Shown piece by piece: positions 6,896 through 49,251 of a stretch of 64,000 nt of DNA. The DNA comes from Chloroflexota bacterium (GTDB lineage: Bacteria; Chloroflexota; UBA11872; VXOZ01). The stretch's first letter is position 1; the number at the start of each line of letters is the position of its first letter. The notes under the pieces were generated by a model, which worked only from the letters and a program-made list of their open reading frames with translations, ran no database searches and had not been told where the DNA came from. The stretch is from NCBI GenBank assembly GCA_022824225.1, contig JAJEAH010000048.1:1-64000 (forward strand). The letters run 5' to 3'. The position numbers were made by a program, and so were the translations under genes.

Positions 6896-9800
6896 CTACA
6901 GCCGCCGGTTGGAGATGACGGGTTCGGAGGCGAGGAGGTGGCGGAGGGTGCTGAGGTTGGGGAGATCAAGGATGTGGGTGAGGCCGTCGTCGAGGGCTTG
7001 ACGGGCGGGGCAGTGGGCCATGCCGGGGAGCCGCTCGAATTCGGCGGTGGCGAGTGTGTCGAAGAGGCGGGAGAGGGATTGAAGCTGGGAGGCGGGGAGA
7101 CGGCGGGGGTCGAGGACGGGCAGGTTTGCGAGGTCAGCCTTTTTCAGTGCAACCCAGCCTCCTCTTGTGCTAGTCCGCTGGGCCAGTATTGTCAGCAAGC
7201 CCAAGCTGGAGTTCATCCAAGCAACCAGCGCCTTCTCCATGGCCTCGGCTTCAACGGTGACGGGCCACCACACGTTTGATAGAACTCGCACTTCCGACTG
7301 CATGGCAACAATCCTGGTCGTCTCTAGCCAAAGCCTCTCCGATATAAGGAGCCGACTAGATTGTTGCCAAAGGTGTTCACCATACCCTGGCCGCTGTCCG
7401 CCTCTTGGCTTTACTAGTGGCGAAAGATAGGCGTCAGGCGAACACGTCATGGTCTTTCTTTGCTCCGTGTCGTGACCTTCAACCATAGGATAGGCTGTAA
7501 CCGAACTCGTCCTATCGAACCCATCAACCAGTCTCCGTCTGTCAGGGCCGATTTCACCAAGTTCCCGCAGTTTGCACAGCGGAATGCTGGCGGTTGACGG
7601 CTCGCCGGGGACCCAGACTTCTCCATCATCCAACAGGCGCGCGGCGCTCCTTAACACGTCGGCGCGGGCGAATTGGACGCCGAACCACTGCTTGCCGGCC
7701 AGGTCTGGTTCCGGGATGGAGACCACTTCGCCTACGTCCTGGCCGTCCACTCTCAGTAGCGCTGTGCCGGATTCTTCCAGTTCTGCCGGGGGCGTTTCGC
7801 TGACGGCCTGCGCGGCGCGGTGGGCGTCCACGATGCCGTCCGGGTTGTGCCAGAGGTTGACGAAGGTGGTGCGGGGTGAAGATGGGTGCTCGCCCCGTAT
7901 CGCGTACGGGGCAGGCTTTTCGTGTGACTCGTCACTCCGGCGGAGGCCGGAGTCCAGGGCACGCGGAGAGGATGGATTCCCGCTTGCGCGGGAATGACGG
8001 TCACTTTCTGGTGCGCGGGAATGACGGTCTGCTCCTGGATTCCGGTTTTCACCGGAATGACGGACTGCCTCTGGATTCCGGCTTTCGCCGGAATGACGGA
8101 ACGAGGCGCCGGTATGACGGGTTGATGCGCTGGCGCGGCGCGTGGCGATGAGCAGGGCTTCCGAGAGGTCGGTGCTGTCCGAGAAGTTCCAGCGTTGGGG
8201 ATCGTGGGACGCAATCACCATATCGAGGGTGAAGTCCTGCTCGATCAAGGCACGGGTCTGCGCCCAGGAGGGGCCGGTGCAGACGGTGAGCGGCAGCACC
8301 AAAGCCAGCCGTCCCTCGCCGGGGAGCAGGTTAGGCGAAACGGCCGCCACGAACGCCGCGCCGAGACCGGCGGTGGCGGAGGCCTGCCGCGACTTCAGGC
8401 GGCGCGCCAGTTCGTCCTGGAGCTTGCGCCGTTCTCCCGCCGGCAGACTGCCGAACAACAGATTGCCGCCCACGGAGCGCGTAAACGGCGGATTCATGAT
8501 CGCCAGGTCGAGCTTGGGCAGCGTGGCTTTCGCGCCTTCCGCCGTGCCGCGCGCGCCGCTGCCCGCCACCTGCGCCACGTCGCCGCTGGTCACGCCGGTT
8601 TCCTGCGGGGAGAGCGCGTGCTGCACCGGCGCTTCAGTCGTTCCCAGGAAGTCCAGCGAGCCGAGCGACACGCGCTCACTCTCCACGCCCAGGGGCATGA
8701 CGTAGAGGTTCATGCGGTCGAACTGGATGTGCGGGTTGAGCATCGCGAGGCTGGTGGCGGCGAAGTGAATGGCGGAAAGCTGCACGTCGTAGCCGTGCAG
8801 GGCTTGTTCCACCATGGCCTTGTGCAGCGCGGCGGCGCGCTTGCCCCCAGCGGCTTTGTGGCGGCGTTCCGCTTCCGCAGCCACCGCCATGAGCAGCGTC
8901 CCGGTGCCGCAGGCCAAATCGGCTACGCTGAGGGAGCCAGGAAACGTGTGGTCGCGCCAGTCAACGCCCGCCGGCCAGTTGTGAAAGACCAGCCGTGTCA
9001 GCAACGTGGCCGCGGGCACTGAGGTGTAGTACGCGCCAGTAAACTTGGCGTCGGACAAGAGGGTGTGGAAGAGCCGCCCCGAGAGGTCGTGGCCTTCCAC
9101 GTTGCGCGTCTCCGCTACTGCCTTGACCAGGGGCAGGATGACGGGCGTGCGCACGTCGGCCGGCCCGTCCTCGAGCACCGCGAGAATCTCGGCCGCCAAG
9201 GCAAAGACCGGCACGTAGTCGATGGTGTCGCAGATGAAGCGCCAGGTTTGCCGCAGGCTGGGAATGCCCTGCCGTGAGGCTTCGCGCACCGTTTTCACGT
9301 CATCGTTGACGGCGGCCAGGCGGTCCTGGAACGCCAGCGCGTTGAAAAGCGCCAGGCAACCGATGCGCAGCGCGGCGGCGCGGTTCTTCTCCTGGTCGGT
9401 TTCGGCTATGAGGTCGGCAATGCGGCGGGTGATGCGCTCGTGTTTATCAAGCCGGTACACCGCTTGCTCCAGCGCGTAGCTGATGGATTGCGCGGCGGCT
9501 TCCACCTGGTCCGTGACCTGCAACTCCAGGGGCAAGGTGCGCAGGTGGTCGGCGAGATCGGCGACGGAACCGGTCCGTATCTGGCGCGGCGCTTGCGGCG
9601 AAGCCTTGGCCATCTCGAGCAGCGTCGGCAACGTCGCCAGCCACCACTGGAGGTCAGCGGCTTTCTCCAGTTCCGCTTGGGTATCCTCCGCATGACGCAG
9701 CCGTTCGGGGTAGAGCACGCCGAGCACGGCGAGCGCCTCGGGAAAAGCGGCGCGGCGTTCCTGGAGTTGGGCCTCCAGAGAACTCTCCGAACCCTCCCAC

Positions 9801-9973
9801 TTGCACTCCAAGAGGATCAGGCCGCTGCGCAAGTTTATGCGCACGTCGGGCGCGCCTCGCCGGCTGCGGCGCTCCGCCTTGGCCGGAACGCCGCGCTGCG
9901 AAAGCAGAAGGGCCAGGTGGACGTTTACTTCCTCTTCGCGCGTAGTCTCTGTTTCTTTTGCTCTGCTTGCCAT
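6896..9973 (-). CDS. N6-adenine DNA methyltransferase with N-terminal PD-(D/E)XK-like region (type IIG-like RM enzyme)
   Basis: N-term GAPDVRINLRSGLILLECKWEG (PD..ECK); ADLACGTGTLLMAVA (motif I); LAIMNPPFTRS (NPPF motif IV); 1025 aa. Confidence 0.8.
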   Translation of the reverse strand: MASRAKETETTREEEVNVHLALLLSQRGVPAKAERRSRRGAPDVRINLRSGLILLECKWEGSESSLEAQLQERRAAFPEALAVLGVLYPERLRHAEDTQAELEKAADLQWWLATLPTLLEMAKASPQAPRQIRTGSVADLADHLRTLPLELQVTDQVEAAAQSISYALEQAVYRLDKHERITRRIADLIAETDQEKNRAAALRIGCLALFNALAFQDRLAAVNDDVKTVREASRQGIPSLRQTWRFICDTIDYVPVFALAAEILAVLEDGPADVRTPVILPLVKAVAETRNVEGHDLSGRLFHTLLSDAKFTGAYYTSVPAATLLTRLVFHNWPAGVDWRDHTFPGSLSVADLACGTGTLLMAVAAEAERRHKAAGGKRAAALHKAMVEQALHGYDVQLSAIHFAATSLAMLNPHIQFDRMNLYVMPLGVESERVSLGSLDFLGTTEAPVQHALSPQETGVTSGDVAQVAGSGARGTAEGAKATLPKLDLAIMNPPFTRSVGGNLLFGSLPAGERRKLQDELARRLKSRQASATAGLGAAFVAAVSPNLLPGEGRLALVLPLTVCTGPSWAQTRALIEQDFTLDMVIASHDPQRWNFSDSTDLSEALLIATRRASASTRHTGASFRHSGESRNPEAVRHSGENRNPGADRHSRAPESDRHSRASGNPSSPRALDSGLRRSDESHEKPAPYAIRGEHPSSPRTTFVNLWHNPDGIVDAHRAAQAVSETPPAELEESGTALLRVDGQDVGEVVSIPEPDLAGKQWFGVQFARADVLRSAARLLDDGEVWVPGEPSTASIPLCKLRELGEIGPDRRRLVDGFDRTSSVTAYPMVEGHDTEQRKTMTCSPDAYLSPLVKPRGGQRPGYGEHLWQQSSRLLISERLWLETTRIVAMQSEVRVLSNVWWPVTVEAEAMEKALVAWMNSSLGLLTILAQRTSTRGGWVALKKADLANLPVLDPRRLPASQLQSLSRLFDTLATAEFERLPGMAHCPARQALDDGLTHILDLPNLSTLRHLLASEPVISNRRL
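7921..8140. repeat. Cluster of dispersed short palindromic repeats (gattccNgcttKcgcNggaatgacgg type) inside the RM CDS
   Basis: Multiple copies of 'ggattccggctttcgccggaatgacgg' and 'ggattcccgcttgcgcgggaatgacgg' in tandem. Confidence 0.85.
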
Positions 9974-10202: not shown

Positions 10203-11018
10203 CTAGCACTTCGTCTTGAACAACCGCGCCAGGTTCTCGCCGAGGATTAGTTTCTTTTCCGCTTCGGTGATTGGGGACAGGAGCACGCGGCCGAGTTGGT
10301 AGGTGGCGCAGGTCCAGGGCATATCGGAGCCGTAGAGGATCTTGTTCGCGCCGGCGAGGCGCACCATTTCGGTGAAGTCGCCGCGGTAGCCCACTGAAGC
10401 CGCGGTATCCAGGTAGACGTTCGGTTCTTCCGCCGCCACCTGCACCAGATCCAGGCTGCTCTTGGGACTGCCGCCGGCGGCGTGGGCCACGATGAAGTGG
10501 GCGCCGGGATATTCGCGGGCGATGCGGCGCAGCGTCGCGGGCGTGCCGGTGCCGTGGCTGATGAGGGGCAGGCGGTGGCGGTGGGCCAGCTCGAACGCGG
10601 GCACGTAGCCGGGGCCGTCGAAGGGATAATTGGCCGTGCCGGTATGCAGCTTGATGCCCACCGCGCCGGCATCCAAGCAGCGCTGCAACTCGTCCCGCAC
10701 CAGGTCCGCCTCGTGGGGATCGGGCACGGCGTAGGCCAGCAAGCGGCCGGGGAACTGCCGCGCCGCCGCCAGCGAGATGTCGTTGCCTTCCCGCATGTCC
10801 AGCAAGATTGCCATAGAAGAAAAGACACACGCCTGGTCCATGCCCACGCGGTCCATGGTGCGCACCATGCCCGCGGCGTCGTTGAAGGTCTGGTAGAAGA
10901 GCGCGGTGGGGCCCACGTGACAGTGGTTGTCGATGACCAGCGTGCCGTGGAGCGGCGTGCCGTCCAGGGCCTGTTCGCGAAGTGACGAGGTGGGTGCGGT
11001 GGGAGCGCCTGCTGCCAT
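10203..11018 (-). CDS. Amidohydrolase family (TIM-barrel) protein
   Basis: LVIDNHCHVGPTALF (HxH), ISHGTGTPATLRRIAREYPGAHFIVAHAAGG, ILYGSDMPW; likely start at ATG 11018. Confidence 0.8.
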   Translation of the reverse strand: MAAGAPTAPTSSLREQALDGTPLHGTLVIDNHCHVGPTALFYQTFNDAAGMVRTMDRVGMDQACVFSSMAILLDMREGNDISLAAARQFPGRLLAYAVPDPHEADLVRDELQRCLDAGAVGIKLHTGTANYPFDGPGYVPAFELAHRHRLPLISHGTGTPATLRRIAREYPGAHFIVAHAAGGSPKSSLDLVQVAAEEPNVYLDTAASVGYRGDFTEMVRLAGANKILYGSDMPWTCATYQLGRVLLSPITEAEKKLILGENLARLFKTKC

Positions 11019-11111
11019 GGGTGCCTGCCTCACGTTCGTGGTGTGTGTTGGCTCGTCGCGGGGTTGCTGGCTATGATTATACCCCGCGGCGCGGCCAAAC
11101 CGTCTGGGGTG

Positions 11112-11504
11112 GCGGCCCCCTGCGCGGGGAACGGCCTGGCTGAAGTCAACGTCGGCATACGCGCCAAAGGTGGCGGCCCCCTGCGCGGGGAACGGACGTC
11201 CGCTGCCGCCTCTGCGCCCGCCGCGTCGGCGCGGCAGTCCCATTCGCGCCGGACGACGCCCATTCCGTCATTCCGGCGAAAGCCGGAATCCAGGGCAGCC
11301 CCATGCACGCGAGGCGGCGACAAGATCAAGGTGCTGCACGGCCTGCGCGCGCAAAGCAGCCCCATGCACGCGAGGCAGTGACGCACTGCCGCCAGTGGGT
11401 CTTTGCCCCACCCCTGGCAGCCCCATGCACGCGAGGCGGCGACCTTGCTGCTCGTGCTGCTGAGCAAACGCTCAACGGCGGCCCCATGCACGAGACGCGC
11501 CGCC
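11112..11504. CRISPR. Degenerate CRISPR-like array, 7 repeat units at exact 61-bp period
   Basis: Repeat starts 11112, 11173, 11234, 11295, 11356, 11417, 11478. R1/R2 gcggccccctgcgcggggaacgg; R3 gcagtcccattcgcgccggacgacgcc; R4-R6 gcagccccatgcacgcgaggc; R7 gcggccccatgcacgagacgc. Intervening sequences all differ. Confidence 0.6.
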
Positions 11505-11762
11505 AATCCGGCTGCGCCGCCCTCTTCCCCAGCGGCACGGAGCGCACCGGCGGCGCGCGCCAAGCGGTTTGTCTGCCGCCCTCCCGCTGTGCGCCGCATT
11601 CCCGCACGGGCCAAACTATGCGTCCGGCCCGCTCCGCCATCCGGCAGTTTCCACAGCGCTGATTACCCTTCGTGGTACGATACACCGGTAAGTTCAATGC
11701 GCAGCGCATCCGCGAGTATAGCGCCAGTGGTCCCGCTGGCCGCCGCTCCCAAGAGGGATTCT

Positions 11763-12830
11763 ATGGAACGCACGAAAGACCCCTCGGAACACGCCAGAGA
11801 ACCGACGACGCCGACACCAACGCCGCCACCGACGCGCGCCGAGAACCTGCAGGAGCGCACGCTCGACGCCGGCGAGTACGTGGCATCCCTGCCGGAACGC
11901 CTGGTGCGCAGCGCTGCCGCCGGGGCCGGCGGCCTGGTGCACGAGACCTCCGAGGTCGTGCTGCCGCCGCCGATACGCCACTCGCAACTCTATCAGTCCA
12001 CCATCGGGCGCATGGTGCGCATAGTGGTGGAATTCGTAGGCGGCGTGTCAGGGCCGGAAGCGGCTGACGCGATGGCGATACAGGACCTCGCCGTGCGCAA
12101 GCTGGCCGGCAACGCGGTAGAGGTGGCGAGCGTGGTGGCCGTGGGGTGGTCGCCGCTCTGGATGCTGGCGGCGGCGGCTGACGTCACCGGCGGCACACGG
12201 GCGTATTTGGACGCTTTCGTGAAAGAACTCGAAGACTCTCACGTGCTGCCGCCGGACGCCAACGTTTCCTCCGTGGACGAACTGCTCGCCGCGCTGGGGA
12301 ACACCTCCGGCCAAATGGCCGATACAATTGACATCCCGCCGCTGGCGCTCAATGACATGCGCACGAGTTTGCAGGAATTTCGCAGCCACGCCGGGCAACT
12401 CCCCGACCCGCGCGACCTCACCCAGATATTCACGGAAATGAACCGCGCCGCGGCGGAACAGAACCGCTCGCTGTTCACGGTTTCGTCGCTCGTCGCCGCC
12501 GGAGCGGTGCAGGCGGGCATCCAGCTTGGCAACGTGCATGTCTTTTCGTTTTATCGGGGCTCGCTGAGCACAATTCGCGCGGAAGGCGTGCCGGCATATC
12601 TGCAACGCATCAGCCAACCGTACCTGGAAGCCGCCGCGCTGCACCTGCGCCCCAGCAGCAGCACCCACACCCAACGGCTCCTCCGGCGCTTTCTCACCCG
12701 GCGCTGGCGCAAACGCTCTGCCAACGAGGGCTCTCCCCCCGCAATAGAGGCGACAAAGACGGACAGGCCGGAGGAATCCCGCGCCGGCGACCCCGAGGAC
12801 GATACCACGCGCCAATCGCAAAGGCCATGA
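11763..12830 (+). CDS. Conserved hypothetical protein
   Basis: Long ORF; likely ATG at 11763 (MERTKDPSEHAREP...). Confidence 0.6.
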   Translation: MERTKDPSEHAREPTTPTPTPPPTRAENLQERTLDAGEYVASLPERLVRSAAAGAGGLVHETSEVVLPPPIRHSQLYQSTIGRMVRIVVEFVGGVSGPEAADAMAIQDLAVRKLAGNAVEVASVVAVGWSPLWMLAAAADVTGGTRAYLDAFVKELEDSHVLPPDANVSSVDELLAALGNTSGQMADTIDIPPLALNDMRTSLQEFRSHAGQLPDPRDLTQIFTEMNRAAAEQNRSLFTVSSLVAAGAVQAGIQLGNVHVFSFYRGSLSTIRAEGVPAYLQRISQPYLEAAALHLRPSSSTHTQRLLRRFLTRRWRKRSANEGSPPAIEATKTDRPEESRAGDPEDDTTRQSQRP

Positions 12831-33139: not shown

Positions 33140-34605
33140 ACAACGCTAACCGTTCGCGCTGAGCTTGCCGAATAGCAGAACAACCGTTCGCGCTGAGCTT
33201 GTCGAAGCGCCTGACCGCGCTGGAAGCAAATGGAGTCCGGTATTTCGCCTAGCCCGCAGCCGTGGCGCCTGGTTGGTGGCTGGCCTGCCGCCTGCTGCCG
33301 TTCATACTTCGACGCGCTCAGCACGAACGGCAGCAGGCTGCGCACGCGGAGGCTAGGGCTCCGGGGGTGTCAGGGGCAATCCCAGCAAGCGGCCTGGCAC
33401 GAAGTACTCGGTTGTAAGGCTCTGGAGGCGTTAGGGGCAATCATCTCATTCCCAGCAGGCTGCGTATGGGGTGGCTATGGAATGCGCCTGCCACGGGTCG
33501 TGTGTTCACTGATGTAACGTCTGCGGTAGGGCGAAAGCGGAGATGGTGTGGGTCGTTGCGCGTTGGCGGTGGGAGCGCCAAGAAGGCGTTCGCACTGAAC
33601 TCGGACACGCAGGTACCGCAGACCGTTCGCGCTGAGCTTGTCGAATAGCAGAACAAGCGTTCGCGCTGAGCTTGTCGAATAGCAAAACAACCGTTCGCGC
33701 TGAGCTTGTCGAAGCGCCTGACCGCGCTGGAAGCAAATGGAGTCCGGTATTTTGCCTAGCCCGCAGCCGTGGCGCCTGGTTGGTGGCTGGCCTCTGCCTG
33801 CTGCCGTTCATACTTCGACGCGCTCAGCACGAACGGAAGCAGGCTGCGCGTGCGGAGTCCAAGGAATGCGCGAGCGGAGCCCAAGGAATGCGCATACGGA
33901 GACATAGGAATGCGCTTGCCGAGATTGGCGTGTTTTCTCTGGGGTAGCCGCCTGTGGTAAGGGAAAAGCGGACGGTGCGCGCATGGTCACGCGTTAGTGG
34001 TGGAAGCGCCAAAAGGCCGTTCGCGCTCAGCTCGAACACGCGGGCGCCACTCACCGTTCGCGCTGAGCAACAAAACGCAGACACCGCTCAACCGTTCGCG
34101 TTGAACAACGAAATGCAAACACCACTCACCGTTCGCGTTGAGCAACAAAATGCGAACACCGCTCAACCGTTCGCGCTGAGCAACAAAATGCAGACACCGC
34201 TCAACCGTTCGCGCTGAGCAACAAAATGCGAACACCGCTGACCGTTCGCGCTGAGCAACGAAATGCAAACACCGCTTACCGTTCGCGCTGAGCTTGTCGA
34301 AGCGCCTGGCCGCGCGGGAGGGAGGCGGATCCCGGTGTGTTGCCTAGCCCGCAGCCGTGGCGCCTGGTTGGTGGCTGGGCTCCGCCTGCTTCCGTTCATA
34401 CTTCGACAAGCTCAGCACGAACGGAAGCAGGCTGCGCGTGCGGAGTCCAAGGAATGCGCATACGGAGACATGGGGCTGCGCGTACGGAGAAATGGGGCAG
34501 ATTCTTGACGAAGCCAACGAGCGCGCCTCCATGGGGCTGCGCGTACGGAGACATGGGTCTTAGCGTACGGAGCCCAAGGAATGCGCGTGCCGCGATTTGC
34601 GTGTA
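33140..34605. repeat. Composite repeat island: three 146-147-bp inverted-repeat-bounded elements, two 22-bp tandem arrays, one 37/38-bp tandem array
   Basis: Elements at 33184-33330, 33691-33836, 34279-34424; 22-bp units at 33846/33868/33890/33912 and 34434/34456/34478 and 34539/34561/34583; 37/38-bp units at 34054/34092/34129/34167/34205/34242/34279. Confidence 0.9.
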
Positions 34606-47592: not shown

Positions 47593-49251
47593 ATGAGGAG
47601 GTCTTCTGTGATTGGCCGGATACGACGTAGTATTACGGTAGCCTTAGCCCTTGCGGCGCTCATGGTCGCCGTTTCCTGTAGTGTGCGCGTGATCGAGCCG
47701 CCGCCGGATCCGGCGGAGGATTCCGCCGCATTTACGCAGTATTTCGTGGAACAGGCGATTGCGTTCTACGAGGCGAACGGACTGCAAGCGACCATCGACT
47801 TCTACAACACGATGGAGAGCGTGAATGGCGCGTGGTACGTTTTCATCTCGGACGAGAACGACATCATGCGCGCCCATGCCGCCGTGCCGGCCAACGTGGG
47901 GTTGCATGCCGATCAGATTTTGGGGCCGGGCGGATACCCCGCGGGAACACAGGTAGCCGCGGCGGCCACTGCAGAGGGCGCCTGGACTACCTACACCTAT
48001 ATAAATCCGGCAACGGAGGCATTTCAGACGAAGCACTCGTGGGTGGTGCGGCATGACGGTCTGGTCTTTGGCTCCGGTTGGTATGAGGATGGACCGTCGA
48101 AAGATGACCCGGCGGCCTATACACAGGAGTTCGTGGCCCAGGCGGTCCGGCTGTATGAGGCTGTTGGGTTAGCAGACACGGTAGCGTACTACAACACGCC
48201 GGACAGCATTGACGGTCAATGGTACGTCTTCGTCTTCGATGAAAACGACACCATGCTCGCCCATGCCGCCGTGCCGGCGAACGTGGGACTCCACGCCGAC
48301 CAGATTTTGGGGCCGGGCGGCTATCCCGCGGGCGCGCAGGTAGTGGCGGCGGCGGCTGACGAAGGCGCGTGGACGGACTACGCGTACGTCAACCCATCAA
48401 CCGGCGCATTCGAATCTAAGCACTCGTGGGTGGTGCGGCACGAAGGGCTCGTCTTCGGCTCGGGCTGGTATGAAGACGGCGCGTCGAAGTCCGATCCGGC
48501 GGCGTACACCCAGGCATTCGTGGCGCAGGCTATGCGGCTCTACGACGCCGTTGGGCGCGAAGACGCATTTGCCTATTACAACTCGCCGGAAAGCGTAGAC
48601 GAGGACTGGTACGTCTTCATCGTGGATGAAGACGAAAACACCATCGTGCACCCCACCCGTCCTGAATTGAGAGGCACTTCCCCGAAGACACGCGTTGACG
48701 TGCGCGGCAAGGCGTATGGCGAGGAGCTCGTTCTCGCGACGGCGGACGGCATCTGGGTAGACTACTATTTCCTCAATCCCGCAACCGGCTATGAGGAGCA
48801 GAAACACGCTTGGGCGGTCAAGCACGATGGCCTGATCTTCGTCTCCGGTTGGTACGTGCGTGCCGAGGCGGAGGACGATGCAACGTATACCCAGTCCTTC
48901 GTGCACCGCGCCATCCAGCGGTACGACGCGCAAGGTCGCGAAGCCGCCCTCGAGTTCTTTAGCTCAGAGCAGAGCGTGCAGGGCCAGTGGTACGTGTTCG
49001 TGCTCGACGAGAACCAAGTCACTATCGCCCACCCCAATCCGGAGCACATCGGCCGCACCCGTGAGCAACGCATCGACACGCGCGGCTACGACTACGGCGC
49101 GGAGTTCCTGACCGCGACCGCGGAAGGCAAGTGGGTTGACTACGAGTTCCAGGACCCGGAGGCCGACCAAGAACGCCTGAAGCACACGTGGATCATCCAG
49201 CACGACGGGCTTTACTTTGGCTCGGGCTGGTATGAAGACGTAGGCGAATAA
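47593..49251 (+). CDS. Secreted/lipoprotein-like protein with four tandem Cache-like domains
   Basis: SITVALALAALMVAVSCS signal with lipobox-like Cys; four ~127-aa repeats each with WYVFI.DEN....H and GSGWYED motifs. Confidence 0.8.
   Translation: MRRSSVIGRIRRSITVALALAALMVAVSCSVRVIEPPPDPAEDSAAFTQYFVEQAIAFYEANGLQATIDFYNTMESVNGAWYVFISDENDIMRAHAAVPANVGLHADQILGPGGYPAGTQVAAAATAEGAWTTYTYINPATEAFQTKHSWVVRHDGLVFGSGWYEDGPSKDDPAAYTQEFVAQAVRLYEAVGLADTVAYYNTPDSIDGQWYVFVFDENDTMLAHAAVPANVGLHADQILGPGGYPAGAQVVAAAADEGAWTDYAYVNPSTGAFESKHSWVVRHEGLVFGSGWYEDGASKSDPAAYTQAFVAQAMRLYDAVGREDAFAYYNSPESVDEDWYVFIVDEDENTIVHPTRPELRGTSPKTRVDVRGKAYGEELVLATADGIWVDYYFLNPATGYEEQKHAWAVKHDGLIFVSGWYVRAEAEDDATYTQSFVHRAIQRYDAQGREAALEFFSSEQSVQGQWYVFVLDENQVTIAHPNPEHIGRTREQRIDTRGYDYGAEFLTATAEGKWVDYEFQDPEADQERLKHTWIIQHDGLYFGSGWYEDVGE

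What the first reader, a model, noticed from the sequence alone, without database searches (positions are those of the whole stretch)
11112..11504. Cas-less, degenerate CRISPR-like array with exact 61-bp period and two in-phase repeat subfamilies
Seven units begin at 11112, 11173, 11234, 11295, 11356, 11417 and 11478, exactly 61 bp apart. R1/R2 are gcggccccctgcgcggggaacgg, with a CCCC...GGGGAAC stem. R4-R6 are gcagccccatgcacgcgaggc. R3 and R7 look like diverged members. The ~33-bp intervals are all different. A 61-bp period (28-29 bp repeat plus 32-33 bp spacer) and the GCGCGGGGAAC core match type I-E arrays. 61 is not a multiple of 3, so this is not a coding repeat. No cas gene lies in the window. 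Two repeat subfamilies in one phase suggest a decaying or repurposed array, or one maintained in trans.
Basis: partly seen in the sequence, partly recalled or inferred. Interest (0 to 1): 0.78.

Follow-up and report, generated by a model that had tools for sequence, protein, structure and literature searches.

The report
Broken leftover CRISPR-like repeat array
A short, perfectly spaced row of seven imperfect DNA repeats in an uncultured Chloroflexota genome is most likely the dead remnant of a bacterial immune-memory (CRISPR) array, left in a genome that has lost most of its CRISPR genes.

Summary
Seven related units lie exactly 61 bp apart at 11108-11504. R1=R2 over 27 nt, and R4/R5/R6 share an identical 21-nt core. 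R3 and R7 are diverged but in phase, and five of six intervals are unrelated unique sequence. No other stretch of the window has such equal spacing. The units fill a hypervariable gap between two conserved divergent promoters and are absent from five congeners.

The geometry matches the type I-E ruler of this lineage. A congener (G002) has an I-E cas locus and a 38-repeat array with a 61-bp period (28+33). The window's own genome keeps an intact-looking cas3 beside two I-E array fragments, but no Cas1, Cas6e or Cas7e was found.

The array fails several I-E tests: its repeats match only 10-17 of 28 positions of the host/congener repeats, hairpins are weak, there is room for at most ~25 bp of leader, and spacers match nothing except interval 3, a dispersed chromosomal repeat. 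Simple decay of the canonical repeat cannot give identical diverged blocks.

Best reading: an orphan, probably inert array built by an I-E-type Cas1-Cas2, either with a divergent repeat or by ectopic seeding. A non-CRISPR phased repeat is not excluded. Modest interest.

The parts
11108..11134 (+). Repeat R1, GGTGGCGGCCCCCTGCGCGGGGAACGG
   Evidence: 27/27 identical to R2
11169..11195 (+). Repeat R2, identical to R1
11233..11260 (+). Repeat R3, diverged. At the 7 columns where R1 and R4 differ it carries the R4 base at 4 and the R1 base at 3
   Evidence: 71% to R4
11261..11293 (+). Interval 3: a dispersed chromosomal repeat (CATTCCGTCATTCCGGCGAAAGCCGGAATCCAG); 31/33 nt identical to a copy at 8071-8101
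   Evidence: dozens of copies in the genome
11294..11321 (+). Repeat R4, GGCAGCCCCATGCACGCGAGGCGGCGAC
   Evidence: identical to R6
11355..11382 (+). Repeat R5
   Evidence: 89% to R4 over 28 nt, core identical
11416..11443 (+). Repeat R6
   Evidence: identical to R4
11477..11504 (+). Repeat R7, diverged end repeat
   Evidence: 82% to R4
11139..11171 (+). Interval 1 (33 nt in the 28+33 frame)
   Evidence: unique; no phage, plasmid or viral-contig match
11200..11232 (+). Interval 2
   Evidence: unique
11322..11354 (+). Interval 4
   Evidence: unique
11383..11415 (+). Interval 5
   Evidence: unique
11444..11476 (+). Interval 6
   Evidence: unique
11083..11665 (.). Strain-specific filler between two conserved divergent promoters; contains the array
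   Evidence: absent or replaced by other filler in five congeners
10203..11019 (-). Left neighbour: amidohydrolase (PF04909), conserved in the genus
11763..12830 (+). Right neighbour: conserved gene without a Pfam family

Best explanation
The locus is an orphan CRISPR array: seven repeats of about 28 nt and six intervals of 33 nt, laid down by a type I-E Cas1-Cas2 integrase, which sets the 61-bp ruler in this lineage. The repeat was divergent. The array is now very probably inert, because it has no leader, no Cascade (Cas6e, Cas7e) or Cas1 in the genome, weak repeat hairpins and eroding repeats. Shown: the geometry, the non-homologous intervals, the lineage's 61-bp I-E arrays, the eroded I-E system elsewhere in the genome, and absence from congeners. 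Inferred: that Cas1-Cas2 built it, its direction (+ strand, R1 leader-proximal), and its inertness.
For: Exact 61-bp spacing across all six steps with non-homologous intervals, the only such place in the window. The congener G002 array has 38 repeats, all but one step 61 bp, and other genomes of the class also have 61-bp I-E arrays. The own genome has an 865-aa Cas3 (HD+helicase) followed by 61-bp-spaced I-E repeat remnants. On the + strand the window repeats align with class I-E repeats better than column-shuffled controls (P=0.014); R4 core CCCCATGCACGCGAGG vs G002 CCCCGTGCACGCGGGG is 14/16. The array is inserted DNA relative to five congeners.
Against: Repeats are only 10-17/28 identical to host or congener I-E repeats, and R1, R3 and R7 alone do not beat controls. 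Hairpins are no better than shuffles. At most ~25 bp lies between the conserved amidohydrolase -10 and R1, so there is no leader. Intervals have no protospacer match. Interval 3 is a dispersed chromosomal repeat whose homology runs 3 nt into R4. A distant genome carries a dispersed non-CRISPR element resembling R1/R4.
Confidence: 0.66

Rival explanations
1. A non-CRISPR phased repeat: GC-rich palindrome-like sites, for example regulatory or structural elements between two divergent promoters, or a mosaic of dispersed elements that happens to keep a 61-bp step.
For: Lies directly between divergent promoters. The same gap holds other dispersed repeats in congeners. Interval 3 is a dispersed repeat. 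R1/R4-like sequence is a dispersed element in G049. Repeat-to-I-E similarity is weak.
Against: Six equal steps to the base with non-homologous intervals need a ruler; mosaics and operators do not give this. R1 and R4 motifs occur nowhere else in the genome or in 398 relatives except the distant G049 family. Not conserved in congeners.
Confidence: 0.26
2. Simple decay: an ordinary array with the host I-E repeat that lost its function and drifted.
For: The genome has lost Cas1, Cas6e and Cas7e and has a second, milder array relic on C47.
Against: R4=R6 and R1=R2 exactly while both blocks differ from the canonical repeat at 11 or more of 28 positions; independent drift cannot produce identical copies. 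The C47 relic repeats are still close to canonical.
Confidence: 0.05
3. A live array served by Cas proteins in trans.
For: Homogeneous repeat blocks and unique intervals; an intact-looking Cas3 is in the genome.
Against: No Cas1, Cas6e or Cas7e in a 95%-complete assembly, no leader, weak hairpins, and interval 3 would target many chromosomal sites.
Confidence: 0.03

Closest known systems
Type I-E CRISPR array of congener G002 (L047 11771-14041)
   Same: 61-bp period, 28-nt repeat, 33-nt spacers, GC-rich repeat with a CCCC...GGGG core, same genus
   Different: 38 near-identical repeats GGTTCCCCCGTGCACGCGGGGATAGACC with a strong hairpin, and Cas6e, Cas7e and Cas3 in the same locus; the window array has none of these and only 13-17/28 identical repeats
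Degenerate I-E array beside orphan cas3 in the same genome (L061 7087-7932)
   Same: 61-bp pairs of repeats, eroded, without Cas1, Cas6e or Cas7e in the genome
   Different: Its repeats remain close to canonical GGTTCCCCCGCANACGCGGGGATAGACC; it is split by about 600 bp containing a phage-like gene
Orphan CRISPR arrays (reviewed in PMC8616872)
   Same: Array without adjacent cas genes, often a sign of system degeneration; self-matching spacers are linked with loss
   Different: Usually keep the repeat of a known system and a leader; here the repeat matches no array found
Dispersed GC-rich element of genome G049 (GGCAGCCCCATGCGCGGGGAATGG)
   Same: 21/24 identical to R1, and the first 13 nt identical to R4
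   Different: Scattered single copies and an 87-bp tandem with conserved intervals in a distant family of the phylum; no 61-bp array

Membership tests
Type I-E CRISPR array | Direct repeats of 28-29 nt with unique spacers of 32-33 nt, regular period near 61 bp | tested here: met
   six steps of 61 bp, intervals not homologous to each other; interval 3 is a dispersed repeat
Type I-E CRISPR array | Near-identical repeats along the array | tested here: not met
   R1/R2 vs R4-R6 15/22; R3 and R7 diverged
Type I-E CRISPR array | Repeat related to I-E repeats of the lineage | tested here: inconclusive
   P=0.014 jointly; R4/R5 P=0.02/0.004, R1 0.11, R3 0.96, R7 0.35
Type I-E CRISPR array | Stable hairpin in the repeat for Cas6e | tested here: not met
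   z-scores 0.65, 0.52, -0.11, -1.10 against -2.18 and -3.79 for canonical repeats
Type I-E CRISPR array | Leader next to the first repeat | tested here: not met
   only about 25 bp between a promoter element conserved in congeners and R1
Type I-E CRISPR array | Spacers matching phages or mobile elements | tested here: inconclusive
   no match in phages, plasmids or viral contigs; collections may not hold sponge phages
Type I-E CRISPR-Cas system | cas genes in the genome | tested here: not met
   Cas1, Cas6e and Cas7e absent; one Cas3 present on C47; Cas2, Cas5e, Cas8e and Cas11 not searched
Type I-E CRISPR array | Transcription and crRNA processing | not testable with these tools
   needs small-RNA reads

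The most novel reading that the evidence does not exclude
A natural ectopic ('neo-CRISPR') array: the lineage's I-E Cas1-Cas2 inserted prespacers at a non-CRISPR site between two promoters, copying a local 28-bp sequence as the repeat, including a spacer taken from the cell's own dispersed repeat, before most of the cas genes were lost. This would explain the exact 61-bp ruler, the missing leader, repeats unlike the host repeat, and homogeneous blocks.
Probability: 0.15. Interest if true: 0.6.

Novelty: new member of a known kind. Interest (0 to 1): 0.3.

Why it matters
If it is an ectopically seeded array, it would be a natural example of new CRISPR loci arising outside canonical sites. As a plain relic, it documents step-wise loss of a type I-E system in an uncultured Chloroflexota lineage, with a self-matching spacer in the remnant, and warns array finders that period alone is stronger evidence than repeat sequence here.

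Tried and rejected
Coding repeat: 61 is not a multiple of 3, and the gap is not conserved. Orthologous intergenic DNA: rejected, absent from five congeners. Repeat as a dispersed element in the own genome: rejected; R1 hits at 3 mismatches are near control level and R4 occurs only here. Match of R4-R5 to genome G063: lies in another gene on the minus strand (18 nt exact) and is judged chance given the size of the search. Anti-cas spacers: no spacer matches the I-E cas loci fetched. Rfam: no useful match, but the true I-E arrays give none either, so it is uninformative. Exact R4 21-mer in 85,488 genomes: none. R1 and R4 repeats in viral contigs: none.

Full report
The observation. Seven units begin at 11108 and recur every 61 bp to 11477. 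R1 and R2 are identical over 27 nt. R4 and R6 are identical over 28 nt and R5 shares their 21-nt core. R3 and R7 are 71% and 82% identical to R4. All seven are related in phase: R1/R4 match at 15 of 22 columns, a level reached by 9e-5 of the window's 22-mers. At the seven columns where R1 and R4 differ, R3 carries the R1 base at three and the R4 base at four, so R3 is intermediate in sequence as well as position. The interval parts are not homologous (4-14 matches of 30). No other part of the window has a 12-mer repeated three times at one equal spacing between 40 and 100 bp.

The setting. The array lies between a divergent pair of genes, an amidohydrolase (PF04909) and a conserved gene of no Pfam family. 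The genome is a 3.37-Mb, 95%-complete assembly in 87 contigs. Named matches to the amidohydrolase are Chloroflexi/Chloroflexota MAGs, some of which appear to come from sponge metagenomes (inference from isolate names). In five congeners the gene pair is kept, but the stretch between the two promoters is short or filled with other repeats. The array is therefore strain-specific inserted DNA. The promoter element GATTATAC, shared with congeners, ends about 25 bp before R1, so no leader fits.

The CRISPR comparison. Six genomes of the class have a Cas6e, one in the same genus. The arrays near these genes have 28-nt repeats and a 61-bp period, with occasional 62 or 63. The congener G002 repeat is GGTTCCCCCGTGCACGCGGGGATAGACC. 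The window's own genome carries near-canonical I-E repeats on contig C47: a partial one, then 61-bp pairs at L061 7148/7209 and 7845/7906. They follow an 865-aa Cas3 with HD and helicase domains and are interrupted by a gene of the Phage_VG64 family. Cas1, Cas6e and Cas7e are absent from the assembly. The genome thus holds a broken I-E system, which makes a second relic plausible.

What does not fit. The window repeats match the G002 repeat at 13-17 of 28 positions and the host's own repeat at 10-14. A joint profile test on the + strand gives P=0.014, and single repeats give P from 0.004 to 0.96. Hairpins are no stronger than in shuffled sequence, unlike the canonical repeats. Because R4-R6 are identical in their core and R1=R2, while both blocks are far from canonical, plain drift of a canonical array is not an explanation: the copies must have been made from already divergent repeats. 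A distant genome, G049, has a dispersed element, GGCAGCCCCATGCGCGGGGAATGG, that resembles both R1 and R4 but is not in a 61-bp array. It shows that sequence resemblance of such GC-rich motifs is weak evidence either way.

The intervals. Intervals 1, 2, 4, 5 and 6 match nothing in phages or plasmids beyond chance, and exact 20-mers have no hit in 2.9 million viral contigs. None matches the cas loci fetched. Interval 3 is a chromosomal dispersed repeat, TCATTCCGGCGAAAGCCGGAATCCAG with flanks, with dozens of copies in the genome; 31 of 33 nt match a copy at 8071-8101. Its homology continues 3 nt into R4 in some copies, so insertion rather than spacer capture is not excluded. If it was a spacer, it would have been strongly self-matching. 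Incomplete systems have been suggested to arise from self-targeting (PMC8616872), but a causal link here is inference.

Verdict. The exact ruler with non-homologous intervals is best explained by a Cas1-Cas2 integrase of the I-E kind known in this lineage; the array is very probably dead. Whether it came from a divergent I-E array or from ectopic insertion at a non-CRISPR site is open (the latter estimated at 0.15; ectopic integration by Cas1-Cas2 is recalled from general knowledge, and a literature search did not return the source). A non-CRISPR phased repeat keeps about a quarter of the probability. CRISPR-Cas has been reported in sponge Chloroflexi of the Caldilineae and SAR202 (PMC6306507).

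Noticed in passing
L061 4342-7932 (own genome, contig C47): Intact-looking 865-aa Cas3 followed by fragments of a type I-E array, interrupted by a Phage_VG64-family gene; no Cas1, Cas6e or Cas7e in the genome.
   Followed up: yes
window 7973-8101: Several copies of the dispersed repeat (TCATTCCGGCGAAAGCCGGAATCC type), partly with a 36-bp period, lie inside the 1025-aa reading frame 6896-9973 (-) and are read as RHSGESRNP-like peptides.
   Followed up: partly
L088 and L089 (genome G049): Dispersed GC-rich element GGCAGCCCC[A/T]TGCGCGGGGAATGG, nine copies in the genome, three in an 87-bp tandem.
   Followed up: partly
window 33622-34293: Tandem repeats of 34 and 38 bp containing ACCGTTCGCGCTGAGC.
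   Followed up: no
window 47833-48635: Tandem duplication with a 387-bp unit (2.1 copies, 76% match), a multiple of 3.
   Followed up: no
L017 648-1438 (congener G002): The same gap between the divergent genes is filled with other dispersed repeats in a congener, so it looks like a hot spot for inserted repeats.
   Followed up: partly
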